From assembly GCF_000373385.1 (NCBI RefSeq), contig NZ_KB891333.1:62001-126000 (forward strand): DNA of 64,000 bases. The letters run 5' to 3'. This DNA comes from Thiobacillus thioparus DSM 505. GTDB lineage: Bacteria > Pseudomonadota > Gammaproteobacteria > Burkholderiales > Thiobacillaceae. Below are positions 41,916 to 59,482 of the stretch, piece after piece; position 1 is the first letter of the stretch, and the number at the start of each line of letters is the position of its first letter. A model generated the notes under the pieces. It did not search any database and was not told the origin of the DNA. It was given only the letters and a program-made list of their open reading frames with translations. The position numbers and the translations under genes were made by a program.

Positions 41916-42872
41916 TCAGAAACGCATCGTCAAACCGGCGGTGGCGGCCCAATCGGTCGTCAGCTGGACGCCGCGTACGTTCTGGTAAAGCGGCAACTGA
42001 ATCAGACCAAACGCCTGCATGTTCCTGCCGATGGGCAGCGCCAAGCCAGGCGAGAAGAAAACGAACCGCCCGCCGCTATCGGCCGGCTCGGCGTCCGCAC
42101 CTCGGTCATGGCCGCGCCAGAGCAGGTTGATTTGCGCCAGTGCCTGTACCGGCCCCAGCGGATAGCGGATTCCGGCATCCAGTCCCAGCTGATCGCCCGG
42201 ACGATAATTCTGGCGCTCAAGCACCGCATGCTGCCAACGCAACTGTGCGTGCCAGTCGGTCTGCGCAAAACGACCCGACACGAATCCGCCGGCGATGAGA
42301 TCAGTAGAGCCTGATCCCGGCTGTAGGGAACGCTCTGCTACATCGCCATCGTTGTTGCGCACATCGATGCTGCCGGTAGGCAGCTTGATTCCGCCTAGCA
42401 GGCCAAAAGTCCCCTGTGACGGCACGCTCGTATCCAGACGTATGTGTGTCAGCATCCGGATATCGCCGAGGCGCGTGAAATCCCAGCTTTCAGGAATAGG
42501 GACGCCATGGTGATTATGGATATGCAGATGGTCGCGCGACACCACCGGGATTTGAACCGACAGGTTCCAGTCTGGTGTGAGTGCATGACTCAAGCCCACC
42601 ACCCAGTTGCGGTTATAGGTTTCCACCTCCTGATGGTGACCGCCCCCCAAGACCTTATCCGTCCCTGAACGCGGTTGGTTCTGGTGGATGTATTCCATGC
42701 GCAGATCCAGGCGAGTGGCGTCATTCTCCCAGGGGGCTTGCGTATCCCAGTCGGTATTGACGGTACAGAACGCTGAACCGCAACTAGCGAATGCCAAGCC
42801 GTGAATACCCCATAGCGCGCACATCGCACTATATTTCAACCGCCGGCTTCTTCCTGAAAAGCGCATTTTCAT
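41916..42872 (-). CDS. His-rich outer-membrane barrel protein, last gene of the thiocyanate dehydrogenase operon
   Basis: A 318-residue protein resembling the transporter/Phenol_MetA_deg barrel group: a signal peptide (ends near GLAFAS), a CGSAFC pair, strand-rich sequence such as WVVGLSHALTPDWNLSVQIPVV, and the C-terminal signature AATAGLTMRF ending in Phe. A histidine-dense loop DHLHIHNHHG near residue 108 could bind metal. ATG at 42872 is preceded by GGAG. It is 76 bp downstream of soxK in the same direction. A role in copper or thiocyanate passage through the outer membrane is inference. Confidence 0.7.
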   Translation of the reverse strand: MKMRFSGRSRRLKYSAMCALWGIHGLAFASCGSAFCTVNTDWDTQAPWENDATRLDLRMEYIHQNQPRSGTDKVLGGGHHQEVETYNRNWVVGLSHALTPDWNLSVQIPVVSRDHLHIHNHHGVPIPESWDFTRLGDIRMLTHIRLDTSVPSQGTFGLLGGIKLPTGSIDVRNNDGDVAERSLQPGSGSTDLIAGGFVSGRFAQTDWHAQLRWQHAVLERQNYRPGDQLGLDAGIRYPLGPVQALAQINLLWRGHDRGADAEPADSGGRFVFFSPGLALPIGRNMQAFGLIQLPLYQNVRGVQLTTDWAATAGLTMRF

Positions 42873-42948
42873 CCCTTGCTCCAACATGCACACATCGGGC
42901 AACTTCTGGCTGCATGCGTGATAAAAAGCAGACCGCCACACAGACAGG

Positions 42949-43278
42949 CTAATGCTGGCTGGTAAGCGGGCCATCGACTTGCGCCATGCCGAGAGACGCC
43001 TGCTCGGTGGCAACGGCGGCGTACTTCATCACCGCTGCATTATCTTGTTGCTTGGCGGCTTCCTGGGCTTGGGCAAGCGCACTGGCCGCGGTGGTCCACA
43101 ATGCTTTCTTGGCTATTGCCAGCGCCACGCCAGACTCCGCTCTCGCCAAGGCCTCAGTGGCCTCAGCCGACAAGATCGGCTTGCTGCTGCTTTCGGCAGC
43201 GCGCGCGCCATGTCCCGCCACCCCCATCACAAGTCCACTCCATACGAGCAAACGGATCGCAATACGACATGAATTCAT
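42949..43278 (-). CDS. soxK: SoxK-like SoxAX-binding protein
   Basis: A 109-residue secreted helical protein: signal ending near GARAAE, then Ala-rich helices (EATEALARAESGVALAIAKKALWTTAASALAQAQEAAKQ). Size, secretion, helical Ala content and position directly after soxA fit SoxK/SAXB, the third subunit of SoxXAK complexes. Identification relies mainly on context. AGGAGG precedes the ATG. Confidence 0.65.
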   Translation of the reverse strand: MNSCRIAIRLLVWSGLVMGVAGHGARAAESSSKPILSAEATEALARAESGVALAIAKKALWTTAASALAQAQEAAKQQDNAAVMKYAAVATEQASLGMAQVDGPLTSQH

Positions 43279-43304
43279 TTTTCCTCCTGGCCGCCCCCGG
43301 CTCG

Positions 43305-44141
43305 CTATTTTCTGAAAACTGATGATTTGAGCGGCAGGCCATTGCTGAGATACGAGTGGAAGTACTCCAGGTTGTTGTACTCCTCCCCGCCAATTTCCAT
43401 GGGTACCGCACGCACCAGTTGATTACATGCCGAGTAGCGTCGCTGCAGCGTAAACAAAGCGTAATCGCCCCCACGGAAGGCCGGCCAGTGCGTAGCCTGG
43501 CCCGGCAACATCGAGAGATACTCGGTACGCAGGATTTCGCCGACGTGGTCTACATGGCAGCTTGCGCAGGAAAAATTGAGCTGTCCGCGACGCTGATAGA
43601 AGAAGCGGCGGCCGGACTCGAAGGCTGCCAGGGCGCCGCTGCCCTTCACCTTGATGTTCATGAGCATGCCATCCGACAAGGTCCTGGCGTAAGCGGTAAG
43701 CAGGCCCATGGTATTCATGTCAGCTTGCTTGTAGGGCGCTTCGCCATTATTTGCTCGGCACTGGTTGAGCGCCATTTCGAAGGTGACCACTTTTTTCATG
43801 GCCTCATCGTAGTAAGGGTAATTGCCGGCTACGTTCCTGCCACCTCCGGGAAAGCAATCGGCATAACGCTTGCCGTTGTTGAACGGGGTCTCCCACAACT
43901 GGCGCCCCTTGTCGATCTCGGACTCGAACGGCGGGAACGCCATCATGTTTTCATATTGCGCCTTGGCATCCGGGCTGAAGGCCAGCGCACCATACACATA
44001 GTCTTCGAACTTGATATCGGGGTATTTTTGCTGCACCGCCTGTACGCGGTTCAATCGCTCCTGTTCCGGAGAGAGGGACAGCGCATCGGCACTGAAAGCC
44101 AGCATGCCCAGGCAAGTCAGCATCCATGTTGTTTGTTTCAT
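43305..44141 (-). CDS. soxA: L-cysteine S-thiosulfotransferase subunit SoxA, monoheme type
   Basis: A 278-residue secreted SoxA. One heme site CASCH (Cys192-His196) is present. The N-terminal heme of diheme SoxA is missing, replaced by Cys96 (ADCFPGGGRN) and Cys128 (LNQCRANN), which fit the disulfide of monoheme SoxA. Cys239 in RRYSACNQLVRA aligns with the catalytic cysteine that becomes persulfidated and ligates heme. With SoxX and SoxK it fits a SoxXAK trimer that conjugates thiosulfate to SoxY. No soxYZ, soxB or soxCD is in the window, so here it may serve sulfur released by thiocyanate dehydrogenase. Confidence 0.88.
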   Translation of the reverse strand: MKQTTWMLTCLGMLAFSADALSLSPEQERLNRVQAVQQKYPDIKFEDYVYGALAFSPDAKAQYENMMAFPPFESEIDKGRQLWETPFNNGKRYADCFPGGGRNVAGNYPYYDEAMKKVVTFEMALNQCRANNGEAPYKQADMNTMGLLTAYARTLSDGMLMNIKVKGSGALAAFESGRRFFYQRRGQLNFSCASCHVDHVGEILRTEYLSMLPGQATHWPAFRGGDYALFTLQRRYSACNQLVRAVPMEIGGEEYNNLEYFHSYLSNGLPLKSSVFRK

Positions 44142-44180
44142 GTTTCTTTTCTCTTTCTAAATCACATGACAGCCGGGCAT

Positions 44181-44588
44181 TCACAGCCCGTAGACGTAAT
44201 CCACGACTTTGTTGATCTCCGTGTCGGTCAGAATCCCGTTCTTGCCGAATGGCGGCATCGCCGTGTCGGGATTGGCTCGCGTAGCATCCCAGATCTGTCC
44301 ATACAGCTTTCTTCGATCGGGGAAACGCGCCGCCATGCCGATCAGCGGCGGAGCGATGTTGGTGTTGGTCACCGTTTTGGGCTCACCGGGCATGGCATGG
44401 CATGCCAGACAATTTCCCTTGCGGTTATCGAAGGCCAGTTCCTGTCCGGTCGGTTCCGGCTTGGGCGCTTCCGCTGCCCGTGCCGAGGAAATGAATGTGG
44501 CAGCGAGCAGAAGACCCAAGCTGACTGCGGTGACGATTGCAAGTGGTTTCCCCATCTGTCTTACCCTGTCGGTTTTAATTAACGCCAT
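44181..44588 (-). CDS. soxX: Sulfur-oxidation monoheme cytochrome SoxX
   Basis: A 135-residue secreted cytochrome. With this start the heme motif CLACH is at residues 60-64, inside the SoxX signature FDNRKGNCLACHAMPG. PPLIGMAARFPDRRKLYGQIWDA and the Met111 ligand in AMPPFGKNGILTDTEINKVV follow. An alternative ATG at 44555 gives a more compact signal peptide (MGKPLAIVTAVS). It is 39 bp before soxA and 22 bp after the pentapeptide gene. It receives electrons from SoxA. Confidence 0.9.
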   Translation of the reverse strand: MALIKTDRVRQMGKPLAIVTAVSLGLLLAATFISSARAAEAPKPEPTGQELAFDNRKGNCLACHAMPGEPKTVTNTNIAPPLIGMAARFPDRRKLYGQIWDATRANPDTAMPPFGKNGILTDTEINKVVDYVYGL

Positions 44589-44610
44589 AAAATTACAAAC
44601 ACCTTTGTTC

Positions 44611-45387
44611 TCACCCTTCGTACAGCGTGAGAACAAACTGGAACGGATCCTCTCGAGGCGTAGCGCCCTCGCCCGCAAAATGCGGCTGCCGCATGGTGCC
44701 GAGCTTTTCTCCGCTTTCGCTCAAGACATGCATATCGCAAGGGCCGGGCTTCAAATCAGGGCAGGTAGTCGTGGCATCGGTTGCCACCCCGTTGACGTCG
44801 GCATGACTGAAATCGGCCTCATGCAAATTTGCGCCAATAAAATTTACATTGGTCAGGTCCGCAAACAGGAAGCGGGATTCGTACAAATCGGTGCGGCTCA
44901 GATTCGCGCCCGTCAGGATGGCCCCTTCCATATTGGAATATTCCAGCTTGGCCCCGGAAAAATCGGCACGTGCCAGATTGGCCATGTTTAGATTGGCCCG
45001 GCTCGATACCGCCCGCGTCAGGTTGACGCCGCCCATATCCGCAGCACTCAAGTTGGCCCCGCCGATAACCGCGCCACTCAGGTTAGCCCCGGTCAGTTTG
45101 GCTTGATAGAGCGTGGCACCCGTCAGATAGGCGCCGGCAAGATTGGCCCGGGACAGATCAGCCTGGGACAGATCAGCCCCCATGAGATTGAGGCCGGACA
45201 GATCAACCCCGGACAGGTCGCATTTCACGCAGGCATTGGTCGCAAGCAATCGGTCGCGGCTGTCCCTGTGCGGGACCGTCGTTTGAGCGGTCGCCGCATG
45301 CGCCATCGCCGCGGTCGCCGCCAGGAATGCCAAGCCTGCGATCTGGCCGGCCCGAGAGAACCAATACCTGGGTTGTGCCATCTGCAT
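44611..45387 (-). CDS. Secreted pentapeptide-repeat protein
   Basis: A 258-residue protein: signal peptide (to about MAHAATA), a Cys-x2-Cys pair (TNACVKCDLSG) and then roughly 28 A(D/N)LXX repeats from ~56 to ~195 that would fold into a right-handed quadrilateral beta-helix. The C-terminal ~60 residues have two more cysteines (TTTCPDLKPGPCDMHVL). Its position between the thiocyanate dehydrogenase and soxX suggests a scaffold or assembly factor, which is inference. AGAGGAGAG precedes the start. Confidence 0.8.
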   Translation of the reverse strand: MQMAQPRYWFSRAGQIAGLAFLAATAAMAHAATAQTTVPHRDSRDRLLATNACVKCDLSGVDLSGLNLMGADLSQADLSRANLAGAYLTGATLYQAKLTGANLSGAVIGGANLSAADMGGVNLTRAVSSRANLNMANLARADFSGAKLEYSNMEGAILTGANLSRTDLYESRFLFADLTNVNFIGANLHEADFSHADVNGVATDATTTCPDLKPGPCDMHVLSESGEKLGTMRQPHFAGEGATPREDPFQFVLTLYEG

Positions 45388-45485
45388 GTCTGCTCTCCTC
45401 TCCCGCTAACCGCCGATACCTGTCTGCACCGGAAAGCACAGCTCATCATGCAGTCGCAGATACATCATGATTCCAGGTTCGCGGC

Positions 45486-45953
45486 TCAATGCTTTCCCGC
45501 GTGATCCGCCTTCAAGTCGCCCAGCAGATAGCGAACCTGCAAAGGTTTTTGTCCCTTCATCGTCACGGTCAGGACGATCTTGGTACCGGCAGCAGGCCTG
45601 ATCCGGGAATCCTTTCCTGCCAGTTCGTTGGTGCCGGCCGGATTCAATTTCACCGTCATGGTTTGCGTGCCCGCGATGAAATGCAGGCTGGCGTTCGCAC
45701 CCTGGGTCGATTGGGGCGCATCACCATGGTCGGTGACCCATACCTGGACCTCGCCATCCTTCACCACCAATTCGAAGTGATACATCTCCGCCATGCGCAG
45801 CAAACCGCCGTGGTCGCCCTTGATGGTGGCCAGATATTCGTTACTGTGGGCCAGCGCCGCAGTCGGCAGGCCCAACGCAGACAGCAGACCCAGGCAGGCA
45901 ATCCAGCGCATTGCCGAGGCGAATGTATTCGCGATCGTTTTTTGAATATTCAT
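45486..45953 (-). CDS. Secreted protein of unknown function in the thiocyanate dehydrogenase operon
   Basis: A 155-residue protein with a signal peptide ending near PTAALA. The mature start HSNEYLATIKGDHGGLLRMA and AEMYHFELVVKDGEVQVWVTDH resemble short beta-rich domains seen beside copper and heavy-metal efflux proteins. It carries spaced histidines (start, middle, C-terminal DHAGKH) and no cysteine in the mature part. A copper-binding or enzyme-maturation role is inferred from context only. GGAAG precedes ATG 45953. Confidence 0.6.
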   Translation of the reverse strand: MNIQKTIANTFASAMRWIACLGLLSALGLPTAALAHSNEYLATIKGDHGGLLRMAEMYHFELVVKDGEVQVWVTDHGDAPQSTQGANASLHFIAGTQTMTVKLNPAGTNELAGKDSRIRPAAGTKIVLTVTMKGQKPLQVRYLLGDLKADHAGKH

Positions 45954-45994
45954 GGTCGTCTTCCAGTTCTTTAATAATCTTTCCATCGGATATC

Positions 45995-46019
45995 CCGTCG
46001 GCGGCGATGCCGCCGACGG
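45995..46019 (-). other. Perfect 11-bp hairpin between tcDH and the next gene
   Basis: CCGTCGGCGGC-GAT-GCCGCCGACGG lies 18 bp after the thiocyanate dehydrogenase stop with no T-tract on the minus strand. It looks like an mRNA-stabilising or partial-termination structure that would keep the enzyme message more abundant than the downstream sox genes. Confidence 0.55.
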
Positions 46020-46037
46020 AAATAACGAAACGTTCCG

Positions 46038-47504
46038 TTACACCGAGGTACTACGCGAGAACTTCATGCCTTCCCAGCTTTCCGGCACCACGACGTGGTC
46101 GTGCATGCCGCCGGGAACGGCGATACGGGCTTCGATCTTGTCGGTCTCGACGTTCAGGATCACCAAGCCGGACTGTCCGCCCTGGTTGCCGCTGTACACC
46201 GTGGTCATGTACTTGCCGTCAACGGAGCAGTCGCAGGTATGGGGATCCGGGCCGGTATCCCACTTGGCGGTCACCTTCCAGGTTTTGGTATCCACCTTGC
46301 AGATGTAGCCATTGTTCGGCTTGCGCGCCCACATGGTGAAGTAGGCAAAACGCGAATCCGGCACGTTGCCCATGTGCAGCGGCAGGTATTTGTCGCCGAA
46401 TCCCTCAACGAAGGCTTCCTTCTTCCATTTGAGCGGATTCTCATCGGTCGCACGGTAGATCGCGATGTTGTTCTGCAGCACGTTGTTGCATGCGCAGAAA
46501 TACTCGCCGCTCGTAATGAAGCCAGCCTCATGCAAAGGCGTAAGCACCGACGGCACGGAGAAGGTCCAGGTGAACCCCTGTTGCCTGGTCAGCGGGAAAT
46601 TGTCAGGCGCGCCCTTGGCGGTGGAAAGCAGCGCAACCACTTCCCAGGTACGCGTATCGACGATCGCGCAGCAACCGAGGCGGCGAATCAGGATCGCACC
46701 AAACGGCAGGGTTGGGTGCCAGGTAAAGGCATCCACGAATACCGCGGTCGGGTCGGCCGGCATCAACTCTTCGCCCAGCATCGCCTCATGGGTCGTCTTC
46801 ATGCCCTTGCGGCCCACGTAGTCGAACTTGCCGGTGGTGGCATCGGGGAAGACATGGCTGATGTGAAGCTGCCGCTTGACGGGGTCGTAATCGGCACGGA
46901 AAGCCTTGACGATTTTCGGGTTGTCATCGATGGTGGTGATCAGCACCATGTCCTTCTGGCCATCTGCAAACGCGACATACTTGTTGGCGTTTTCGCCCAC
47001 GCCGATGGACACGTGCACACCCAGCGACATACCCGTGGTCACGCCGATGTCATTGACCACTTCGATGTGGTTTTGCTTGCCGCTACCGTCATAGCGCATC
47101 TTGAACATCTTGAAATCGCCCCGATCACGCCATTCGGGGGAGTTCTCGTTGACATAAGGCGTCCCGGGCGGCTGCATGGTCTGGTAGAAATCGAACCCCT
47201 TGTAGGGATCGGCCGAAGGCATGGCAGCGATGTGGTGCGGGATGGGCATGTTGACGCCAGCCAGGCCGTAGTTGTACCAGGCCAGGGTTTCCGGCACGGC
47301 AAGGTCGAGCGCCTGCACGTAACCGCCGTACTTGCTCGGCAGCAGCACAACGTTGCGATCGAATTTCTTGAAGAAATCAGCCTGCGCTTCGTTGAGCGGA
47401 TCGTGGCGAGCTGCCATGGCGCTTCCCGAACCCAAAACACCCGCTGCCCCGGCCATGCCGGCAGCGAGCGAACCCTGTATGAACTGCCTTCTGGAAATAC
47501 TCAT
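46038..47504 (-). CDS. tcDH: Copper-dependent thiocyanate dehydrogenase (TcDH) homologue
   Basis: A 488-residue Tat-exported beta-propeller protein (MSISRRQFIQGSLAAG signal). It matches TcDH of Thioalkalivibrio in SKYGGYVQALDL, MPIPHHIAAMPSADPYKGF, TPLHEAGF, ACNNVLQNNIAIY and PGGMHDHVVVPES. From memory of the Tv. paradoxus structure, the copper/active-site residues K103, H135, H206, D314, H381, H437, H482 and H528 align here with K58, H90/H91, H164, D258, H325, H377, H422 and H468, so the trinuclear copper centre looks intact. The reaction is SCN- + H2O to OCN- + S0 + 2e- in the periplasm. Nitrous oxide reductase shares the propeller, but its CuA domain is absent here. The protein is shorter than the ~550-residue Thioalkalivibrio enzyme. 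AAGGAG precedes the ATG. Confidence 0.87.
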   Translation of the reverse strand: MSISRRQFIQGSLAAGMAGAAGVLGSGSAMAARHDPLNEAQADFFKKFDRNVVLLPSKYGGYVQALDLAVPETLAWYNYGLAGVNMPIPHHIAAMPSADPYKGFDFYQTMQPPGTPYVNENSPEWRDRGDFKMFKMRYDGSGKQNHIEVVNDIGVTTGMSLGVHVSIGVGENANKYVAFADGQKDMVLITTIDDNPKIVKAFRADYDPVKRQLHISHVFPDATTGKFDYVGRKGMKTTHEAMLGEELMPADPTAVFVDAFTWHPTLPFGAILIRRLGCCAIVDTRTWEVVALLSTAKGAPDNFPLTRQQGFTWTFSVPSVLTPLHEAGFITSGEYFCACNNVLQNNIAIYRATDENPLKWKKEAFVEGFGDKYLPLHMGNVPDSRFAYFTMWARKPNNGYICKVDTKTWKVTAKWDTGPDPHTCDCSVDGKYMTTVYSGNQGGQSGLVILNVETDKIEARIAVPGGMHDHVVVPESWEGMKFSRSTSV

Positions 47505-47555
47505 TAATTTAACTCCTTGCGTTGTATAGCTTTATGCAGACGCCCTAGCGTCGAT

Positions 47556-48209
47556 TCAGATGTCGCCTTTCTTCCAGTCCTGCGGACCGACGAAGACCTT
47601 TTCGATCGTGCCGTCGGCAGACAACAGGAAGCTGGTCGGCAGGCCGCGAATCCCCAGGCGCGTAGAAACGCCTTTAGGGCTCAGCACGTCGTTGGGCGCC
47701 ACATACATATCCCGCTTCAAGTTATGCTCCTTCTTGATGAGGCGCATGGTTGCCGCTGTGGAAGGAATCGCTTGCGTCGGACCGCCCATCAGGTGCGTAC
47801 CCATCGTGTCCGCATTGACAAAAACGACATTCGTTCCACGGCCGTATTTGTCCACGAACTCCTCGGTCTTTTTCAGTTGAGCAACCGAAACCGGTACCGC
47901 GGAGATGAAAAACACCACCAGCGTACGTTTGCCCGCCACCAAGCTGCCGAGATCGGCTTTTTTCGCTTGCGAGTCGTAAATCTCGATGTCGGTCGGCATT
48001 TTTGTGCCTACCGCCATCGGTTGGATGAACACTTCGCCCCCCACCTGCTCGGCAGACGGAAAGGTGCCATCCTTGCCATCCGCCAACACCGCGCTAACGG
48101 GTATTGCAAGCAGCCCCAACGCGAAAAGAGCTGGCCCCGCCGTGCAAAGTGCAGAAACGACGCGTCGCTTCTCCAGCCCACCTGATACCGTTGTTGCCTT
48201 AGATTTCAT
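47556..48209 (-). CDS. TlpA/redoxin-fold secreted protein lacking the CxxC active site
   Basis: A 217-residue exported protein with a long N-region and a membrane or signal segment (residues ~17-43). The thioredoxin-like fold is visible in KRTLVVFFISAVPVSVAQLKK and the cis-proline strand LGIRGLPTSFLLSADG. Where TlpA has WCxPC, this protein reads S-A-V-P-V (residues 103-107), so no redox cysteine remains; the only Cys is in the signal region. It may act as a chaperone or copper-delivery partner. First gene of the tcDH operon, 51 bp upstream of tcDH; AGGAG precedes ATG. Confidence 0.78.
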   Translation of the reverse strand: MKSKATTVSGGLEKRRVVSALCTAGPALFALGLLAIPVSAVLADGKDGTFPSAEQVGGEVFIQPMAVGTKMPTDIEIYDSQAKKADLGSLVAGKRTLVVFFISAVPVSVAQLKKTEEFVDKYGRGTNVVFVNADTMGTHLMGGPTQAIPSTAATMRLIKKEHNLKRDMYVAPNDVLSPKGVSTRLGIRGLPTSFLLSADGTIEKVFVGPQDWKKGDI

Positions 48210-48366
48210 CTGTAAATTCTCCTGTTGTTAAACCCTGTCGCACGACCGACCCGAAATCAGAACCGGATGCCACACAACCGAACCGCCATCCAGAAACCCG
48301 GCGGCCAAACCGCTCTCCAGAAAGCCTGTCCAACAAAGCTGCGACACCTTGTCGCGGTTGGTCTGG

Positions 48367-48383
48367 AGCACTTACCATGCCAA
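48367..48383 (-). promoter_or_regulatory. Sigma-54 promoter of the redoxin-tcDH-sox operon
   Basis: On the minus strand the sequence reads TTGGCATGGTAAGTGCT: TGGCA(T)G, four bases, (G)TGCT, with the invariant GG (48381-48380) and GC (48369-48368) exactly 10 bp apart. It differs from the TGGCACG-N4-TTGCW consensus at two positions. The predicted start is near 48356, giving a ~146-nt leader. Confidence 0.75.
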
Positions 48384-48434
48384 TTTAATTTACTGTTTAT
48401 TTTCAATGGATTGAACGCACTCCCCCTCGCTCTG

Positions 48435-51540: not shown

Positions 51541-54194
51541 GCCATTGCTATCGTACGGTCAATGGTCGCGTCGACCGGTTCGGGCAAGGGCACACGCACA
51601 TAAAACCGCGTGCCGCGCCCCACCTGGCTTGCAATGCGGATACGGCCGCCCCACTCCTGCACGAAGCGCTGCACGATGGCGAGCCCCAGCCCGGCACCAT
51701 GCGAACGCTGGGTATAAAACGGCTCAAAAATCAGCTTGCGCTCCACGGGCGGGATGCCCTTGCCGGTATCCGCCACGACCAGCAGAAACCAGCCGGGGTA
51801 GACACGTACCGTGGCATACACGTGGCCCCGCCCATGAATGGCCTGCGACGCATTGAGCAGGAGGTTCCACAATACGACTTCCAGTCCGTCCGCATCAAAC
51901 AGATGGGGCATGGCGTTGCCCGAGATGTCCGCTTCTACTTCAATCATTTGTCCCTGTTGCTGAACATGGCGTTCCAGGGCTGCACACACCTTGTAAACCA
52001 GCGCCTCCAGCACCACCGGCTTGTTTGCCATCACACGCGGCTTGCCGAACATAAGGAAGTCGCGCGTCAGATTATCCAGCCGCGCCACCTCGTCCTGGAT
52101 GATTTCCAGGGCGTCATGGCTTCGGCCCCCGGTATTACGTTCCGCCTTCAACACCGCCAGACAATTGGTAATGGCCGACAGCGGATTGCGTACCTCATGC
52201 GCCACCGAGGCAGCCATCTGACCCAGCGCTGCCAGGCGTTCCGCGCGGATTTTGTTTGCCTCGGACAGTTTAAGTTGCTGGTTGATTTCGGACAATTGCT
52301 GGTAGCTATGAGCATTATTGATTGCGATGCGGACCTGGCCAGCGAGCAGTTCCCCCTTGGCCAGGGTCGCCTCGCTGAATTGCACCCTCTCCCTGCGTAT
52401 CAGCACCATGGCGCCGATCAAGCGCTCTTCGTCCAGCAGGGGAAACAGCGCCATCGCTCCCCAATGGCAGCCCAATGGCTGTCCTGAGACCAACAACGCC
52501 TGACTGTCCGACCACAGCATGGCACGGGGACGGAAGTGGCCGTCGATATTATTCAGAAGCCGTGCGCACGAACGGCCATCGCGACACCAGGCCTCCAATT
52601 CGGCAGTACAAGCCTTGTCGCTGTCGGCAAACCATCGGGCCGCCAGAGTAAAGCGCCCGGGTTCCTTCTCGCTGGGAAGCCAGACCAGCGCCCCTTCACT
52701 GTCCAGCAGGGCAGCGCTTTCGCTGCATACCGATTCAAGCACCCGCTTGAGGTTCAGGGTTGAGGTCATCATGGCCGATACCCGTAGCAAGGCGGCCCGG
52801 AATTCGTTGGCATCCAGCCAGCGGTGGTAAAGCAACGCATTGTTGACGATAGTGCCAATCTCCGCCGCCAACGCCTGCAACTGGCCCATGCGCTGGCGCA
52901 AGTGCTCGCGATCTTCCATGAGCAGCCGAAGGTGGCCGATCTCCTGACCGCTTGCCGTGAGCGACAGGCAAACCGACTGATCGACCGTACCGGAAGAGCA
53001 CTCGTAATAGCTGCCACCCGACTCCCTCACCAACTGGCAGCTTTGTCCAAAACAGGTGGCGTTCGACGCCTTGGCGCGAATGGGCCAGTGTGATCCCAAT
53101 TGGGGCATGTGCCGCTCGAACTCATCGACTTCATCCGCCGGAATGCTCAGGATCAACTCACCACAGGGGATACCCAGCAGTTGGTTGACCGCACCGGAGA
53201 CCACATCGAGCGCATTGTTGAGATCGGGCGAGGTCATCGCCTCGCGTGCCATGCGGTTGCGTATTCTAAGTTCCTGATTGACGTTTCTGATCCTGCGCTG
53301 GGTGCGATGCAGTCGCCGGTTGGCGCGCATCAGAACATGGCGCGAGCGCTCAATGGTATTGAGCGCCAGCAGGAAACCGACTGACACCGTGATCATGACG
53401 CCCAGATAGAACATCATTTTGACCCCGTGCCACCCCCACCAGATGATGTCCCATAGTTTGGAGAAGTTAAACAGATAGGCACTCTGGGCAAACACCATCA
53501 GCAGACTGGCGATCACAAGTGCAAGGCTTTTCCGATACTTCCGGTAATAACCGTAAAACGCAACGGCATCGAGCGCATAGAGAAAGCTGGCCAGGTAATG
53601 CACGCTATGCGTGGTCGGCAGAAAATCCAGGGAATCGGGGTAAGTGCCCGACATCAGGTTCGGAATGAATATCTGATACAAGACCGCCACCACCAGTACG
53701 ACCAGCCCCCCCATCCCCACAGTGAACACATCGCTGTGAGTAGGCCAGCGTTTCCGATCGGAGAAAATATGGGCCACGATGCCGGCCAGGATCAGCCCGC
53801 TCCCAGACAGGGAAGAGACGGTATGGTAGGCGACAAAATGGTGCAACTCCGGGCCCGGATTCGACCAGGCATGCAGGATGTCCATGACCCCCATGGACAG
53901 GAAAGCCATTCCGAAAAAAGCCCCGTCGTAGCTCTTTTGTCTCGCGCTCACGGCCAGAATCATGCCGGCGACCATCAACGCTACAAAGCCGCAGAATGAC
54001 TCGATCAGCATGTGGCTCTTGATCTCGACAAACTGCTGCGCGAGCAGATGAGGAGAAAGATTCCCAAACAGCAGGATCGGGAGCAAAAGCAGGAATATCA
54101 CCCACAGCATCACTCCGGTCTCGAGCAGGTTGCCCGACCGGTCCGATTCAGGCAGCCCGATTCCACGTTCCATTCGAAAAAATTTCACCTGCAT
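51537..54194 (-). CDS. Membrane sensor histidine kinase with MASE-like 7TM, GAF-like region and cysteine cluster
   Basis: An 885-residue kinase. Residues ~25-285 form a seven-segment MASE-type sensor (SFCGFVALMVAGMILAVSA, GMAFLSMGVMDILHAW). Then coiled coil, a GAF-like region holding an unusual four-cysteine stretch (CFGQSC...ECSSGTVDQSVC, residues ~355-385), a second GAF-like region with another Cys pair (AWCRDGRSC), HisKA (LAALGQMAASVAHEVRNP, His near 663) and HATPase (DTGKGIPP, GAGLGLAIV). The cysteines could bind copper or an Fe-S cluster. It overlaps its regulator gene by 4 bp. Confidence 0.88.
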   Translation of the reverse strand: MQVKFFRMERGIGLPESDRSGNLLETGVMLWVIFLLLLPILLFGNLSPHLLAQQFVEIKSHMLIESFCGFVALMVAGMILAVSARQKSYDGAFFGMAFLSMGVMDILHAWSNPGPELHHFVAYHTVSSLSGSGLILAGIVAHIFSDRKRWPTHSDVFTVGMGGLVVLVVAVLYQIFIPNLMSGTYPDSLDFLPTTHSVHYLASFLYALDAVAFYGYYRKYRKSLALVIASLLMVFAQSAYLFNFSKLWDIIWWGWHGVKMMFYLGVMITVSVGFLLALNTIERSRHVLMRANRRLHRTQRRIRNVNQELRIRNRMAREAMTSPDLNNALDVVSGAVNQLLGIPCGELILSIPADEVDEFERHMPQLGSHWPIRAKASNATCFGQSCQLVRESGGSYYECSSGTVDQSVCLSLTASGQEIGHLRLLMEDREHLRQRMGQLQALAAEIGTIVNNALLYHRWLDANEFRAALLRVSAMMTSTLNLKRVLESVCSESAALLDSEGALVWLPSEKEPGRFTLAARWFADSDKACTAELEAWCRDGRSCARLLNNIDGHFRPRAMLWSDSQALLVSGQPLGCHWGAMALFPLLDEERLIGAMVLIRRERVQFSEATLAKGELLAGQVRIAINNAHSYQQLSEINQQLKLSEANKIRAERLAALGQMAASVAHEVRNPLSAITNCLAVLKAERNTGGRSHDALEIIQDEVARLDNLTRDFLMFGKPRVMANKPVVLEALVYKVCAALERHVQQQGQMIEVEADISGNAMPHLFDADGLEVVLWNLLLNASQAIHGRGHVYATVRVYPGWFLLVVADTGKGIPPVERKLIFEPFYTQRSHGAGLGLAIVQRFVQEWGGRIRIASQVGRGTRFYVRVPLPEPVDATIDRTIAMA

Positions 54195-54276
54195 TGCGTT
54201 TGCTCCAGCCTTGGCGGCCGCGGATAAACCACCTACTTCATGTTAGGTCAGCGCAGTCCGGACAAGGATTATCGGC

Positions 54277-57200
54277 TCACAATCCGCTCGGCACCAGCCA
54301 GCCCTTGCGGCGGCTGGCCATCCAGTGGAAGAGCGTCGGGATCACCAGCAGATTGAGCAGGGTCGAGCTCAACATGCCACCCAGCAAAACAATAGCCAGC
54401 GGCCGTTGCAATTCCTTTCCAGTGGGGTCGCCCATAATCAGTGGAATCACAGCCAGTGCGGCTGTAAATGCCGTCATCAAAATAGGGACCAGGCGGTCCA
54501 CCGACCCTTTCAAGGCGATTTCTCTGGCATTGAGGTCTGGACGCATGCGAAGTAGGGACTGATAGCGGGATATCAGTAACAGGCTATTGCGGGTGGCCAC
54601 GCCGAACAGGGCAATCATGCCGATCAGCGAGGATACGTTGAGGGTCTCTCCGGCCAGTGCAAGTGCGAATACGCCGCCGATCAGAGCCAAAGGCAAATTG
54701 AGCATGACCAGCGATACCAACGACCAGCTCCGGAACGCCTGATACATAACGACCGACATCAACAGTATTGCAGCGGCGGACGTCACCAACAGGGTGCGGG
54801 ATGCACGTTGCTGACCCTCGTAGTCGCCGCCAAATTCAATACTGTAGCCAGGCGGCAACGTAACCTTGTCGCGAATGCGGTCCTGGGCCTCCCGTACCAC
54901 CCCGTCAAGATCGCGTCCTTCGGTGTTCCATTGCACCACCGCTCGGCGTGCGGCACCATCGCGGTTGATCATGTAAGGCTCCTGCACCGATTTCAGCTCG
55001 GCCACTTCACGCAATGGAATGACTGCACCGCCAGGTGACATCAGCGGCATCTCGCCCAAGGTCTGGATATCGCTGCGGGCTGCTTCGTTCACACGCATGA
55101 AAATATCGAAGGTACGGTCCTGTTCCAGAACTTTGGATACCGCCACCCCATTGAACGCGGCACTGACCTGGGTAACGACCGCACCCGGGGTGAATCCATA
55201 GGCGGCTGCGACGGTCCGATTGACCCGGATATCGACACCAGGTACCAAAACCATCGGCTCCATCTGCAAATCCACCACGCCCGTCACGCCCTTCACCGCT
55301 TGATAGACTTCCTGTTGCTTCTGCTGCAGCACCCCGAAATCCTGGCCATAGATCTTCACTGCAACCTGGGCACGCACCCCGGACAGGATCTCCGACATGC
55401 GGTGGGTGATGAACTGGGACACATTGACCGACATGCCTGGAATCTGCGTCAGCTTGTCACGGATGCGCTGCATCACCTCGGGCACGTTGCGGGTACCCGG
55501 CTTGAGAGCAATATCGAACTCGCTGAAATTCACTGGCTGGGCATCCTCGTCCAGACGCGAGCGTCCGGCACGCTGGGCGAGGCTGGCAATCTCCGGCATA
55601 TCGCCGATCAATTGCTCGATCTTGCGGCCCACACGCAAATTTTCCTCCAGTGACGTACTCGGCATCAGCGTGGTCGCGATCACCAGATTGCCCTCGTGGA
55701 AGGCGGGAATAAAGGATCGGCCAAGGGACGGAATCACCAGGATCGCTGCGACCAGGATCAATGCGGACATCGCGGCCGTCGGCAAGGGCCGATCCAGACA
55801 GGGTTTCAATACCTTCGCATAACGGCTGAGCAGCATGTCGGAAATGGGGCTCAAGCCATAGCTCTGATATTGCGGCCGCCGCCCCATGAGGTAGTAACTC
55901 AGAACCGGCACGAGCGTGATGGCAACCACAAGAGAACTGGCAATGGCCGCCAAGTAGGAGATCGCCAGCGGCCGGAAGATACGGCCCTCGATGCCCTGGA
56001 GAAAAAAGATCGGCATGAAGGCCACGATGATCACGAAGGTGGCGAATACCACCGAATTGCGTATCTCGCGCGAGCCTTCGTAAACGATCTCCAGCGCAGG
56101 CAACGGATCCGCAGCCTGCTTGTTTTCACGCAAGCGGCGCAGAATATTCTCGACGTCAATGATGGCATCGTCCACGACTTCGCCAATGGCGAACACCAGT
56201 CCTCCCAGGGTCAGGGCGTTGATGCCGATGCCAAAAAGCCACAGCACCAGTACACCAGCCATCAGGGAAACGGGAATGGCAATCAGGCTGATCGCAGTGG
56301 GACGCCAGCGGAACAGGAACAGCAGCAGCACCAGCGCCACGATAAGGGAGGAATCGAGCAATGCGTCTCGCAGATTGGCGATAGCAGTCTCGATGAAACT
56401 TGCCTGGCGGAATACATCGGGAATCAGCTGAATATCCGCGGGCAGGCTGCGCGCCAGATTGGCCAGCGCCTTCTCGACGTTGTGCGTGGTTTCCAGCGTG
56501 TCCGCACCCCATAGCTTGGAAACGGTTCCGATCACGGCCGGGCCGCCGAAGATCTGGCCATCGCCTCGTTTTACCTCGCTTCCAAAGCGCACCTCCCCCA
56601 CATCCTCGACCCGGATAGGCTGGCCTTCACGCATGACAATCAGTGTCTCGGCCACATCGCGGAGGCTCTGCACCCGGCCATTGACGCGAATGAAATATTC
56701 CTCCTCACTGGTAGGGTAGACGAACCCTCCGGACGCCACCAGATTGGCGCGGCGCAGGGCCTGCATCACCTCTTCGCTGGACACGTCATACTTGCGCATG
56801 CGAATGGGATCAAGCATCACCTGGTACTGCTTCACCCCGCCACCCACTGCCACCACAGACGCGACGCCCGGCTGGGCCAGCACACGATTGCGAATATCCC
56901 AGTCCGCCAGCGTACGCAACTCATGTTCGCGGTTTTCGCCAGACCAGTCGACCAAGGCGAACTTGAGCAACCAGCTCACTGCCGACGTGACCGGCATCAA
57001 TTGGGGAGCCTGGGCCGAGTCGGGCAACTGGCCCTGCACCAGCTGCAATCGTTCCTGGATGATCTGGCGAGCACGATAAATATCGACGCCCCATTTGAAT
57101 GTGATCGTGATGCGCGACAGGCCGACCGACGAGTTGGATCGGATTTGATCGATATACGGGGCTCCCTGCAGGACGATCTCGATCGGCCGGGTGACCAGCC

Positions 57201-57387
57201 CTTCCACGTCTTTAGTCGAGTAACCCGGCACTTCGGTCTGGATCTGCACCTGCGGCGGCGCAAATTCCGGGAATACATCCACCGCCATGTGCAGCGCAGC
57301 GGCGATCGACGCGCCGGCCATCAACACATAAAGCAGCACCACGGCCAGCCGGTTCTTAAGAGACCACTTGATTGCCCAATCAAACAT
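54277..57387 (-). CDS. Heavy-metal-type RND efflux permease (CzcA/CusA family)
   Basis: A 1036-residue RND pump of normal length. N-terminal TM1 (LAVVLLYVLMAGASIAAAL), porter domains, the TM4 signature VFAIGEVVDDAIIDVENI with paired acidic residues for proton relay, and the MFP-contact and docking regions are all present. The TM4 motif differs from the classical CzcA (DFGxIVDGAV) and CusA forms, so the metal cannot be assigned with certainty; copper is likely from context. Two adaptors precede it; no TolC-like channel is adjacent. Confidence 0.9.
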   Translation of the reverse strand: MFDWAIKWSLKNRLAVVLLYVLMAGASIAAALHMAVDVFPEFAPPQVQIQTEVPGYSTKDVEGLVTRPIEIVLQGAPYIDQIRSNSSVGLSRITITFKWGVDIYRARQIIQERLQLVQGQLPDSAQAPQLMPVTSAVSWLLKFALVDWSGENREHELRTLADWDIRNRVLAQPGVASVVAVGGGVKQYQVMLDPIRMRKYDVSSEEVMQALRRANLVASGGFVYPTSEEEYFIRVNGRVQSLRDVAETLIVMREGQPIRVEDVGEVRFGSEVKRGDGQIFGGPAVIGTVSKLWGADTLETTHNVEKALANLARSLPADIQLIPDVFRQASFIETAIANLRDALLDSSLIVALVLLLFLFRWRPTAISLIAIPVSLMAGVLVLWLFGIGINALTLGGLVFAIGEVVDDAIIDVENILRRLRENKQAADPLPALEIVYEGSREIRNSVVFATFVIIVAFMPIFFLQGIEGRIFRPLAISYLAAIASSLVVAITLVPVLSYYLMGRRPQYQSYGLSPISDMLLSRYAKVLKPCLDRPLPTAAMSALILVAAILVIPSLGRSFIPAFHEGNLVIATTLMPSTSLEENLRVGRKIEQLIGDMPEIASLAQRAGRSRLDEDAQPVNFSEFDIALKPGTRNVPEVMQRIRDKLTQIPGMSVNVSQFITHRMSEILSGVRAQVAVKIYGQDFGVLQQKQQEVYQAVKGVTGVVDLQMEPMVLVPGVDIRVNRTVAAAYGFTPGAVVTQVSAAFNGVAVSKVLEQDRTFDIFMRVNEAARSDIQTLGEMPLMSPGGAVIPLREVAELKSVQEPYMINRDGAARRAVVQWNTEGRDLDGVVREAQDRIRDKVTLPPGYSIEFGGDYEGQQRASRTLLVTSAAAILLMSVVMYQAFRSWSLVSLVMLNLPLALIGGVFALALAGETLNVSSLIGMIALFGVATRNSLLLISRYQSLLRMRPDLNAREIALKGSVDRLVPILMTAFTAALAVIPLIMGDPTGKELQRPLAIVLLGGMLSSTLLNLLVIPTLFHWMASRRKGWLVPSGL

Positions 57388-57402
57388 CTTCGTTCATCCG
57401 TC

Positions 57403-58563
57403 TCAGTGATGGTGGTCGCCGTTTGCGGCGCTGGCATGATTGCCGGACATGCGGTACACCCCTTCCAGAATCATCTTGCCGTCGACCACCACCCGGTCGC
57501 GCGGATCGACACCCGTCACCTGGAGCCAACCCTCCGTTTCGCCCAATACTGCTATCGGCTTGCGCAGGTAGTGCCCGGGCGCAGCTTGCACATACACGAC
57601 CGGATCCAGCTTCTGGCCCAGAACCGATTGGCGCGGCACCCAAATTCCCACCCGGCCATCCAGGGCGAGCACAAGCTCCACCGTCTGGCCGGTGGCCAGT
57701 CCAGGCACGCTGCGCCCCAGATCCAGCAGGAAACGGGCACGTTGTGTCCGGGGATCGATACCCGGCACCACCTCGGATATCGGGCGCTGCATCCTTACGC
57801 CGCCAGGCAAGGCGACCTCGACCTTGATGCCTGGCCGAAGCAGGGCCTCCTGACCAGCATAGATATAGCCTTCCACCCACAATGACTGCTTGCTGGACAC
57901 CATGCGCGCCACCGACTTTCCTATCACCACGAACTGCTTCATGGTGCGGTCTCCTGCATTGATCAGCGATCCGGGCTGCACGAACATGTCGGTGACGAAT
58001 CCATCGGTGGGGGCCTCCAGGATGAGGTGTTCCACCACTGTCCCCTTGTCGATCAACGCGGTAATCTGGGGATCGCTCATCCCCCACCAGCGCAGGTTCT
58101 CCTTGGCATCCTTGAGATAGTTCGGCAGACGTCCCTCTTCGCGAAGAACCTGAAGCCGCTCTTCGTTCTGCAGGAATTGCAAATACCCCTTCTGGGTCGT
58201 GATGAACTCGGGATTGAAAATGGACACCATCGGCTGTCCCTTTCTCACGCTGTCGCCGGGGCGCACGAACACCTGAACAATCTGGCCGCTGACGACAGTA
58301 TTTACATCCAGAACCGCCTCGGCATTGGGCACGACCTGGCCGTAAGTCCTCAGCCGTTTGGCAGGAGCATCGGCCCTGACCGATGCGAGCGTGATAACGT
58401 CTCCAATGTCACGCACGCCCGAGGGCAGCCTGACCTCGCTGGCTTCACGGTTGCGTTCGACGATCTGTTCGAATACCCCAGAGTCGCCATGCGCATGAAC
58501 CAGGGCGGACATACTTAGCGCAAGCAAAACAATGGGAAGCGCCAATACCACCTTAATGAACAT
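57403..58563 (-). CDS. RND periplasmic adaptor (CusB-like), larger subunit
   Basis: A 386-residue membrane-fusion protein: signal peptide (VVLALPIVLLALSMSALVHA), barrel-sandwich hybrid (VSGQIVQVFVRPGDSVRKGQP), helical hairpin, beta-barrel and a membrane-proximal domain ending in a His tail (GDHHH). It links the RND pump to the outer membrane and may bind metal. ATG at 58563 overlaps the upstream adaptor by 11 bp; the gap to the pump is 15 bp. Confidence 0.88.
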   Translation of the reverse strand: MFIKVVLALPIVLLALSMSALVHAHGDSGVFEQIVERNREASEVRLPSGVRDIGDVITLASVRADAPAKRLRTYGQVVPNAEAVLDVNTVVSGQIVQVFVRPGDSVRKGQPMVSIFNPEFITTQKGYLQFLQNEERLQVLREEGRLPNYLKDAKENLRWWGMSDPQITALIDKGTVVEHLILEAPTDGFVTDMFVQPGSLINAGDRTMKQFVVIGKSVARMVSSKQSLWVEGYIYAGQEALLRPGIKVEVALPGGVRMQRPISEVVPGIDPRTQRARFLLDLGRSVPGLATGQTVELVLALDGRVGIWVPRQSVLGQKLDPVVYVQAAPGHYLRKPIAVLGETEGWLQVTGVDPRDRVVVDGKMILEGVYRMSGNHASAANGDHHH

Positions 58564-59422
58564 GCGCGTCCCCCGAAAAACTGACCGTTGCCACCACCCC
58601 ATTCAGCAGACCCAGACGCTCAGGCGCACTGAAAACTTGTAACCGCACCCACTGTCTCTGACTGACCGGGTTCACAAAGGCATACACACGCTGCACCTTC
58701 GCGGCCACCGCTATCCGCCCCTTGGCTGGATCAGTCACATAGACCTTGGCAGACTGTCCCGGCTTGATCGCCGAAGCCTCGCTTACCGGTAAACTCGCTT
58801 CCACCACGATTGCGCCAGGCTGAGCGATCGTGGCGATCGTGGTGCCACTGGTCGCGTATTGGCCGCCCTGTGTACCGGCATTGAGAATCTGGTTGTTGAC
58901 CACATTCAGGCTATACAGGTAGCCCGAGGTCGGGGCCTTGATCTTGATCAGCTTGAGCGGCTGGCGCGTTGCTTCCAGACGTTTGATATCCTCCTCCGAC
59001 ATACCGCGCCAGAGCAGATTCATGCGCGCATCGACCATCTTCTCTTCGCTGGTCATGGAAAATGCCCGGACAGCATCCATGTTGGCAAACAAGCCCAGAT
59101 AGGTAGCCTGCACCGTCTCCAGTTCGGCGCTTTCTATCTCGCCCAGCACCTCGCCCCGGCTCACTCTTTTTCCGACATACACGTTGCGGAGATTGGCCAT
59201 GCGGGCGTTGATCTTGATTACCACACTCACCATATGACGGGGATCGATCGATACCTTGGCCGGATAAAGCTTCGCCGGCTCCGCCTCCGCCTCTTCATCG
59301 TCATGATGATGGGCTGCGGCAGGCGCGCTAAACACGGACGAATCGGAATGCGCCCACGCCTGCTGTTGCAGACCGGTCAATAGACAAAACAACGCAGTGC
59401 AACCAATGATGGCGGGCAGCAT
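58553..59422 (-). CDS. RND periplasmic adaptor-like protein, smaller subunit with His/acidic N-terminus
   Basis: A 289-residue secreted adaptor. After a signal peptide (ends QQQAWA) comes a His/Asp/Glu-rich strip (AAAHHHDDEEAEAEPAK), which suggests metal binding, then HlyD-type elements (VYVGKRVSRGEVLGEIESAEL, IKAPTSGYLYSLNVVNNQIL) and a beta-barrel. A second adaptor in the same operon implies a hetero-oligomeric adaptor ring. It is the first gene of the operon, 34 nt after the predicted sigma-54 start. Confidence 0.83.
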   Translation of the reverse strand: MLPAIIGCTALFCLLTGLQQQAWAHSDSSVFSAPAAAHHHDDEEAEAEPAKLYPAKVSIDPRHMVSVVIKINARMANLRNVYVGKRVSRGEVLGEIESAELETVQATYLGLFANMDAVRAFSMTSEEKMVDARMNLLWRGMSEEDIKRLEATRQPLKLIKIKAPTSGYLYSLNVVNNQILNAGTQGGQYATSGTTIATIAQPGAIVVEASLPVSEASAIKPGQSAKVYVTDPAKGRIAVAAKVQRVYAFVNPVSQRQWVRLQVFSAPERLGLLNGVVATVSFSGDAHVH

Positions 59423-59466
59423 GATCAGTATGGACAGCCGTTCCAGAATGTACCGTCCAACCCGTC

Positions 59467-59482
59467 AGCAATGACTGTGCCA
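59467..59482 (-). promoter_or_regulatory. Consensus sigma-54 promoter of the RND/two-component operon
   Basis: The minus strand reads TGGCACAGTCATTGCT, a full match to TGGCACR-N4-TTGCW with GG (59481-59480) and GC (59469-59468) 10 bp apart. The predicted start near 59456 leaves a 34-nt leader. Confidence 0.85.

What the first reader, a model, noticed from the sequence alone, without database searches (positions are those of the whole stretch)
41916..59482. A sigma-54-controlled thiocyanate dehydrogenase, SoxXAK and copper-handling island
Fifteen consecutive same-strand genes combine a TcDH homologue, a redoxin-fold partner, two unexplained secreted proteins, SoxX, monoheme SoxA, SoxK-like, a His-rich barrel, DUF302, SodC, a heavy-metal RND pump with two adaptors, and a kinase/NtrC pair. 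TcDH makes cyanate plus sulfur and needs three copper ions. The other genes fit copper supply or removal, superoxide defence and sulfur uptake. Thiobacillus-type organisms are better known for cobalt thiocyanate hydrolase, so the copper route in this background with its own regulator would be notable. Neither cyanase nor thiocyanate hydrolase is in the window.
Basis: partly seen in the sequence, partly recalled or inferred. Interest (0 to 1): 0.92.

Follow-up and report, generated by a model that had tools for sequence, protein, structure and literature searches.

The report
Thiocyanate-oxidation gene island with sulfur-handling cytochromes
A Thiobacillus genome carries one inserted block of genes for oxidising the pollutant thiocyanate with a copper enzyme, and its cytochrome neighbours recur beside this enzyme in other kinds of bacteria, which suggests where the released sulfur goes next.

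Summary
In detail: fifteen minus-strand genes (41916-59422) form one 17.8-kb island (41899-59712, GC 58% against 64%). Five relatives without the enzyme keep the same flanks with no DNA match to the island between them. The enzyme is a thiocyanate dehydrogenase (TcDH): 13 of 13 published active-site residues are kept, and it is 77-79% identical to the TcDH of two thiocyanate-growing gammaproteobacteria. Their pump-kinase-NtrC-redoxin-TcDH order was published in 2019, so the core is known. Additions: (1) SoxA lies within 20 kb of TcDH in 22 of 28 TcDH genomes (3 inferred across contig ends, 1 decayed); cyanase in 2 of the 20 that have it. (2) The island's SoxXAK is a second copy without SoxYZ. 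(3) The redoxin domain has no cysteine in 20 of 20 aligned rows, so no cysteine persulfide. (4) An unexplained secreted protein models as a CrdA/P19-like copper-binding fold. (5) The "Cus" pump lacks the CusA methionine triad. (6) The genome also encodes all three thiocyanate hydrolase subunits and cyanase, so both thiocyanate routes coexist. Best mechanism: TcDH makes cyanate and sulfur, and SoxXAK loads that sulfur onto the genome's single SoxYZ. The sulfur step is inferred.

The parts
41899..59712 (.). Inserted island, 17,814 bp, GC 58.1% against 64.0% in the rest of the window
   Evidence: Flanks 97-456 bp apart in L135 (G062), L136 (G073), L137 (G087), L138 (G089); 1.7-2.5 kb of other DNA in L140 (G024) and L139 (G085); BLAST matches stop at 41896-41899 and 59703-59713; GC
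59467..59482 (-). sigma-54 -24/-12 site before the adaptor-pump-kinase-NtrC genes
   Evidence: 11 of 12 consensus positions; 0.2 sites of 11 or 12 expected per window
58553..59422 (-). RND periplasmic adaptor 1 (CusB1-like)
   Evidence: HlyD_D23 93.8 bits; near TcDH in other lineages too
57403..58563 (-). RND periplasmic adaptor 2 (CusB2-like)
   Evidence: HlyD_D23 99.6 bits (on the longer ORF 57403-58602)
54277..57387 (-). CusA/CzcA-family RND pump without the CusA methionine triad (A571, F621, E666)
   Evidence: TIGR00914 794.9 bits
51537..54194 (-). MASE3/GAF sensor histidine kinase
   Evidence: Pfam
50146..51540 (-). NtrC-type sigma-54 activator with GSFTGA motif
   Evidence: Pfam; motif
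50116..50131 (-). sigma-54 -24/-12 site before DUF302-SodC
   Evidence: 11 of 12
49537..50058 (-). secreted DUF302 protein
   Evidence: PF03625 50.9 bits
48763..49479 (-). Cu/Zn superoxide dismutase SodC
   Evidence: PF00080 140.7 bits
48507..48529 (-). terminator-like hairpin (9-bp stem, eight T) between the two transcription units
   Evidence: 26 terminator-like sites found against 15.5 in shuffles, so a pattern match only
48367..48382 (-). sigma-54 -24/-12 site before redoxin-TcDH-SoxXAK
   Evidence: 10 of 12 here; a site of 10 or more within 650 nt upstream in 14 of 24 redoxin genes scanned, including 9 of 9 Thiobacillus-type
47556..48209 (-). cysteine-free TlpA/ResA-fold redoxin
46038..47504 (-). 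Thiocyanate dehydrogenase, Tat-exported
45486..45953 (-). secreted protein, predicted copper-binding (CrdA/FetP/P19-like model), kept downstream of TcDH in the main clade; not found in L032, L033, L036, L040
44611..45387 (-). secreted pentapeptide-repeat protein with four conserved cysteines (C53, C56, C209, C217)
   Evidence: Pfam
44181..44555 (-). SoxX, CXXCH and Met ligand kept
   Evidence: TIGR04485 (on the longer ORF 44181-44678)
43305..44141 (-). SoxA, one c-heme, distal catalytic Cys kept
   Evidence: TIGR04484
42949..43278 (-). SoxK-like protein
   Evidence: SAXB model below cut-off; kept in Thiobacillus loci that extend that far
41916..42872 (-). His-rich barrel-like protein, of the copies compared only in this genome's island
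   Evidence: no match in G005, G013, G016, whose DNA runs from 42.9 kb to 41.9 kb with about 50-150 bp between

Best explanation
The island is a thiocyanate-oxidation cassette. Proposed steps: (1) the kinase/NtrC pair senses thiocyanate or a product and fires sigma-54 promoters of two transcription units. (2) TcDH is exported folded by Tat and gets copper in the periplasm with help from the CrdA-like protein (45486) and the cysteine-free redoxin, acting as maturation or docking partners. [quoted passage not shown] (4) The island's own SoxXAK conjugates that sulfur to the cysteine of the genome's single SoxYZ and takes the electrons, so the sulfur enters the Sox/reverse-Dsr route without passing through free thiosulfate or globules. 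(5) Cyanate is hydrolysed by the cyanase encoded near the hydrolase operon. Shown by sequence: the genes, the ligands, promoter-like sites, island boundaries, recurring linkage, a second SoxXA, a single SoxY, cyanase and dsrA. Inferred: every flow of substrate, sulfur, copper and electrons.
For: 13 of 13 active-site residues kept (residue list from the PMC6504805 Fig. 4 legend) and invariant in 15 of 15 aligned rows, window included. TcDH is 77-79% identical to those of Guyparkeria SCN-R1 and Thiohalobacter, which use the cyanate pathway. SoxA lies within 20 kb of TcDH in 22 of 28 TcDH genomes: 18 plain, 3 inferred across contig ends, 1 decayed. Counting Thiobacillus once, 12 of 16 informative lineages against 0.28 expected; 9 of 13 against 0.23 without split or decayed cases. 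Control: cyanase lies that near in 2 of the 20 genomes that have it. The linked SoxA keeps heme and distal Cys, and Thiobacillus-linked SoxA form one clade apart from the same genomes' main SoxA. Gene gaps of 26-98 bp from redoxin to SoxK. One SoxY, in C13, ending GGCGG (printed). In thiocyanate-grown Thiohalobacter FOKN1 the proteome holds 7.1% SoxZ against 2.5% TcDH, Fcc was not found, and the authors name an as-yet-unknown electron acceptor (PMC6934394, passages).
Against: Thiohalobacter and Guyparkeria have TcDH without SoxXA nearby, so local SoxXA is not essential; SoxX was not found in the FOKN1 proteome. G005 has linked SoxXAK but neither a SoxY nor a main SoxA was found, which, unless its bin is incomplete, argues against an obligate SoxYZ step. 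Linkage may reflect clustering of sulfur genes in general. The TcDH tree follows class-level taxonomy, so linkages may be old and not independent, which makes the chance figures too strong. The authors of PMC6934394 read SoxYZA abundance as thiosulfate formed during thiocyanate breakdown, and their purified TcDH did not oxidise SCN-. No expression data exist here for Thiobacillus.
Confidence: 0.5

Rival explanations
1. SoxXAK serves TcDH only as electron acceptor: SoxX/SoxA hemes take the two electrons, and the sulfur leaves as S0 or polysulfide without SoxYZ.
For: TcDH needs an acceptor; Thioalkalivibrio TcDH reduces a monoheme cytochrome c552 in vitro (PMC9456337, passages). SoxXA here lacks adjacent SoxYZ in Thiobacillus, Paracoccus thiocyanatus and the Thiotrichales bin. 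G005 shows no SoxY.
Against: The distal SoxA cysteine is kept in every linked SoxA examined (53 of 53 rows, linked and unlinked), more than an electron relay needs; in Rhodoplanes, Afipia, a Hyphomicrobiales bin, Amaricoccus and Nevskiaceae the linked genes include soxYZ.
Confidence: 0.2
2. SoxXAK is a spare thiosulfate-oxidation set that lies in a sulfur island by ordinary clustering and has no contact with TcDH chemistry.
For: In Amaricoccus and Nevskiaceae a whole sox cluster lies by TcDH; PMC6934394 explains SoxYZA abundance by thiosulfate formation.
Against: Placed 26-98 bp apart in one apparent operon with TcDH; a distinct SoxA clade; near TcDH in 22 of 28 genomes against 2 of 20 for cyanase.
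Confidence: 0.2
3. The redoxin is the sulfur acceptor, as proposed in print (PMC6504805), and SoxXAK acts later or not at all.
For: Beside TcDH in 29 of 29 loci.
Against: No cysteine in the domain in 20 of 20 aligned rows. The paper itself notes the missing motif and invokes glutathione binding, which is not excluded here.
Confidence: 0.07
4. The TcDH homologue acts on another substrate in Thiobacillus.
For: 35% identity to the characterised Thioalkalivibrio enzyme (154 of 437); no activity shown for this clade in what I read; a hydrolase is also present.
Against: All active-site residues kept; 77-79% identity to the only TcDH homologue of two thiocyanate growers.
Confidence: 0.08

Closest known systems
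TcDH locus of Thiohalobacter thiocyanaticus HRh1 and Guyparkeria sp. SCN-R1 (Tsallagov et al. 2019, PMC6504805)
   Same: Two adaptors, RND pump, GAF kinase, NtrC activator, cysteine-less redoxin and TcDH in the same order; TcDH 77-79% identical; the hyp166 and pentapeptide genes downstream of TcDH are also there
   Different: SoxXAK joined to the operon, SodC and DUF302 between NtrC and redoxin, thiocyanate hydrolase in the same genome. The parts of the paper read here do not describe the downstream genes.
TcDH cluster of Thioalkalivibrio paradoxus and T. thiocyanoxidans (PMC5328954, PMC5744179, passages)
   Same: TcDH with a sigma-54 two-component pair; induced by thiocyanate in T. thiocyanoxidans
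   Different: copCD, tatA, fccAB and ABC transporters in place of the RND pump, redoxin and SoxXAK; TcDH only 35% identical
Thiobacillus scnABC thiocyanate hydrolase operon
   Same: Present in this genome: best PDB matches are thiocyanate hydrolase beta (250.4 bits), alpha (242.5, next a nitrile hydratase at 44.3) and gamma (494.7; the best nitrile hydratase scores 187.9), with ABC-transporter and DsrE-like genes and cyanase near
   Different: Cobalt hydrolase giving COS; on the 1.1-Mb contig C1, not in the island
CusCBA copper efflux
   Same: HME-RND pump with periplasmic adaptors
   Different: Methionine triad absent, two adaptors, no outer-membrane channel family hit in the island

Membership tests
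Thiocyanate dehydrogenase | Active-site residues K103 H135 H136 Q156 H206 E288 D314 H381 H437 H482 H528 D529 R544 (5F75 numbering) | tested here: met
   13 of 13 identical: K58 H90 H91 Q111 H164 E240 D258 H325 H377 H422 H468 D469 R484
Thiocyanate dehydrogenase | Tat signal peptide | tested here: met
   PF10518 24.4 bits, cut-off 22.7
Thiocyanate dehydrogenase | Three copper ions and SCN- to cyanate activity | not testable with these tools
   needs the purified enzyme
SoxXA | Family scores over curated cut-offs | tested here: met
   SoxA 205 (cut-off 110), SoxX 88.6 (cut-off 61)
SoxXA | Heme c in each subunit and distal SoxA Cys | tested here: met
   CASCH with RRYSACNQ in SoxA; CLACH and Met in SoxX; the role of these residues is recalled knowledge
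SoxXA | SoxYZ partner | tested here: inconclusive
   SoxY in the genome, in C13 and not in the island; contact not testable
SoxK (SoxAX-binding protein) | SAXB model over cut-off | tested here: not met
   23.4 bits, cut-off 95; called SoxK-like
CusA Cu(I) exporter | Methionine triad M573/M623/M672 (PMC8092243, passages) | tested here: not met
   A571, F621, E666
CusCBA copper efflux system | Outer-membrane channel CusC in the set | tested here: not met
   no outer-membrane efflux family hit among the 15 genes; a channel elsewhere in the genome was not sought
Sigma-54 NtrC-type activator | Receiver, AAA+ and Fis domains | tested here: met
Sigma-54 NtrC-type activator | GAFTGA loop | tested here: not met
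   GSFTGA, a one-residue variant in 12 of 13 NtrC rows of these loci, window included
CrdA/FetP/P19-like periplasmic copper-binding proteins | Fold | tested here: inconclusive
CrdA/FetP/P19-like periplasmic copper-binding proteins | Copper ligands | tested here: inconclusive
   Near-invariant His 36, 48, 59, 76, but HpCrdA is Met-rich and lacks His (PMC9182242, passages); no residue mapping was done
Thiocyanate hydrolase (own genome) | ScnA, ScnB and ScnC subunits | tested here: met
   242.5, 250.4 and 494.7 bits to the alpha, beta and gamma chains of 2dd4

The most novel reading that the evidence does not exclude
SoxXAK in these islands is a thiocyanate-specific sulfur-loading enzyme: it takes the sulfur that TcDH releases from thiocyanate directly onto SoxYZ, a thiosulfate-free entry point into the Sox pathway, and TcDH, the Cys-free redoxin, the CrdA-like copper protein, the pentapeptide protein and SoxXA form one periplasmic assembly.
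Probability: 0.35. Interest if true: 0.8.

Novelty: new variant of a known kind. Interest (0 to 1): 0.62.

Why it matters
How the sulfur and the electrons leave thiocyanate dehydrogenase in neutral-pH organisms is open (PMC6934394 says an as-yet-unknown protein takes the electrons; PMC6504805 proposes the redoxin for the sulfur). The recurring SoxXA neighbour gives a named, testable candidate for both, and another reading of the SoxYZ abundance in a thiocyanate-grown proteome. It also questions two published readings: the pump as a Cus copper exporter and the redoxin as a sulfur carrier. A genome with both the copper and the cobalt thiocyanate routes matters for reading thiocyanate-bioreactor metagenomes, where Thiobacillus was credited with the hydrolase only in the passages I read (PMC8061750, PMC5458468).

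Tried and rejected
Rejected: (a) the enzyme lacks copper ligands: all are kept. (b) The island as a recent transfer between classes: the TcDH tree keeps alpha-, beta- and gamma-type rows largely together and Thiobacillus as one group (95/95, 25 rows), so I claim only gain or loss of the block within Thiobacillus. (c) A single origin of TcDH-linked SoxA: the label needs 7 changes on 53 rows, 5 forced (Pseudaminobacter, G057 and G060 rows stood there as unlinked), and 6 changes, 3 forced, on 42 rows (11 rows of unsure or paralogous status dropped). Since both trees follow taxonomy, old linkage with later duplications is not excluded, so I do not claim a number of recruitments. (d) The barrel as a system part: missing from three near relatives. 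(e) Pfam and NCBIfam gave nothing for 45486-45953 or for the barrel; phmmer against PDB gave only chance-level hits for 45486-45953. (f) Sigma-70-like promoters in the island are fewer than in shuffles (3 against 8.2). (g) No target-site duplication is obvious at the island ends by eye. (h) 10 of 24 redoxin genes scanned, Thiohalobacter included, had no upstream sigma-54 site of 10 or more.

Dropped or uneven in counts: G048 and G057 (TcDH contigs of 9.3 and 3.6 kb) are in the 28 genomes but were set aside in the lineage count. G046 counts there as not linked although its contig ends 0.3 kb upstream of TcDH. Afipia and the Hyphomicrobiales bin are close kin and were counted as two lineages. 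The redoxin alignment A2 holds 20 of the 30 redoxin rows. PF02979 hits in G005, G013, G016, G058, G059 and G061 were not checked for hydrolase against nitrile hydratase.


Full report
WHAT IS THERE. The window is G000:C18:62001-126000 of a 3.2-Mb genome. Its nearest kin among named records are Thiobacillus bins, several with 'SCNpilot' in their titles, and same-genus handles share contig lengths with them. The fifteen genes were found as described. They fall into two apparent transcription units: adaptor 1, adaptor 2, pump, kinase, NtrC, DUF302, SodC (gaps -11 to 87 bp), then a 553-bp gap with a 9-bp-stem, eight-T terminator-like hairpin at 48507-48529, then redoxin, TcDH, hyp166, pentapeptide, SoxX, SoxA, SoxK-like, barrel (gaps 26-98 bp). 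Sigma-54 -24/-12 sites stand before adaptor 1, before DUF302 and before redoxin. The first two are the best in the 64-kb window (11 of 12; 0.2 of 11 or 12 expected in base shuffles). The third (10 of 12; 3.6 such sites expected per window) gains weight because a site of 10 or more precedes redoxin in 9 of 9 Thiobacillus-type loci scanned and in 5 of the other 15.

ISLAND. Matches to six related genomes stop at 41896-41899 and 59703-59713. In G062, G073, G087 and G089 the matching flanks lie 97-456 bp apart; in G024 and G085 other DNA of 1.7-2.5 kb lies between, without a DNA match to the window. Of these six, G089 has a TcDH elsewhere and the other five have none found (G062 is 89% complete). 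TcDH is in 13 of 56 genus genomes searched. GC is 58.1% inside and 64.0% in the rest; 49 other windows of the same length gave 62.3-64.3%. Gain or loss is not decided.

THE ENZYME. TcDH aligns with 5F75 at 154 of 437 identities, and all 13 residues listed in the Fig. 4 legend of PMC6504805 are kept. It belongs to a tight set: 358 of 7998 scored candidates passed E 1e-10, of which the best 120 are listed. In that list, proteins of 58-98% identity are followed by a drop to 36%. The set holds the TcDH of Guyparkeria SCN-R1 (77%) and Thiohalobacter thiocyanaticus (79%), and also Paracoccus thiocyanatus, Rhodoplanes, Afipia, Amaricoccus, Pseudaminobacter, a Nitrospira bin, a Thiotrichales bin and a Nevskiaceae bin. 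I found no shown activity in this clade; purified Thiohalobacter FOKN1 TcDH was inactive (PMC6934394, passages).

SOXXA NEXT TO TcDH. I searched 28 TcDH genomes for SoxA and fetched the surroundings. SoxA lies within 20 kb of TcDH in 22 of 28: 11 Thiobacillus-type (one, G005, across a contig end), a beta bin (G045, across a contig end), Paracoccus thiocyanatus, Rhodoplanes, a Hyphomicrobiales bin, Afipia, Amaricoccus, bin WY3, Thiotrichales, Pseudaminobacter (across a contig end), Nevskiaceae, and a decayed copy in Paracoccus S-4012. Against: Thiohalobacter and Guyparkeria have it far away, the Nitrospira bin has no SoxA over the cut-off, GL140 shows none in 10 kb downstream (its contig ends upstream), and two contigs are too short. 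Arrangements differ: SoxXAK alone (Thiobacillus), SoxXA alone (Paracoccus thiocyanatus, Thiotrichales), soxXYZA (Rhodoplanes, Afipia, Hyphomicrobiales), whole sox clusters (Amaricoccus, Nevskiaceae). A rough chance model expects 0.28 linked lineages of 16 and 12 are seen, or 0.23 of 13 and 9 seen without split or decayed cases. This treats lineages as independent, which the trees do not guarantee. As a control, cyanase, which handles the other product, is present in 20 of 28 and near TcDH in 2. In Thiobacillus the linked SoxA form one clade (14 rows, 100/98), separate from the main SoxA (10 rows, 100/99); a main SoxA was found in 10 of the 11 Thiobacillus-type genomes, not in G005. The linked copy keeps the heme motif and the distal cysteine, as do all 53 SoxA rows. 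The genome has one SoxY, in the main sox cluster on C13, ending GGCGG, and three dsrA matches over the family's cut-off. Result against: no SoxY was found in G005.

TWO ROUTES IN ONE GENOME. C1 holds the three thiocyanate hydrolase subunits: best PDB matches are the beta, alpha and gamma chains of 2dd4 at 250.4, 242.5 and 494.7 bits. ABC-transporter and DsrE-like genes follow, and cyanase lies about 1.6 kb before them. PF02979 was found in 7 of 28 TcDH genomes, including four of the seven same-genus handles (G000, G005, G013, G016); only the own genome's hit was checked further.

LITERATURE. Searches in the open-access library and passages of PMC6504805 (sections 15 and 16 read), PMC5328954, PMC5744179, PMC6934394, PMC9456337, PMC8061750, PMC6382920, PMC8906906, PMC6172326 and PMC5458468 gave no report of SoxXA beside TcDH, nor of TcDH together with thiocyanate hydrolase in one Thiobacillus. 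Subscription papers such as Kantor et al. 2015 were not read.

VERDICT. The core is a known type of locus in a new host. The SoxXAK module, its recurrence, the cysteine-free redoxin survey, the CrdA-like protein, the pump ligand test, the island boundaries and the coexisting hydrolase are the additions.

Noticed in passing
L047:9872-15610, L018:3006-8735, L021:2912-8665: Other Thiobacillus-type TcDH loci carry what look by eye like a BNR-repeat protein, a TlpA-like protein, a TonB receptor and TonB/ExbBD genes between SodC (or its place) and redoxin, which recalls the BNR and outer-membrane receptor genes of Thioalkalivibrio TcDH clusters.
   Followed up: partly
L039:10001-11453 and L115: Paracoccus S-4012 has a decaying island: TcDH in several frames, shortened pump, soxA fragment, soxB in two pieces.
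   Followed up: partly
L033:517-960, L034:637-1080: Two proteobacterial bins have cyanase just upstream of redoxin-TcDH.
   Followed up: partly
L027:12434-12604: A C-terminal TcDH fragment lies downstream of the Guyparkeria TcDH; PMC6504805 mentions a fragment upstream.
   Followed up: no
window 50146-51540: NtrC activator has GSFTGA in place of GAFTGA, shared by 12 of 13 NtrC rows of these loci, window included.
   Followed up: partly
G000:C11:252732, C1:814439, C2:259074-260327: Three dsrA matches over the cut-off in one genome, the third in two pieces of one frame.
   Followed up: no
window 40019-41158: Left flank: small secreted protein and an EfeU/Ftr1-like iron permease below the curated cut-offs.
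   Followed up: no
L012: A record titled Rhizobium sp. carries a TcDH contig identical in length to G005:C52 of the Thiobacillus-type genome, so the title or the bin is probably wrong.
   Followed up: no
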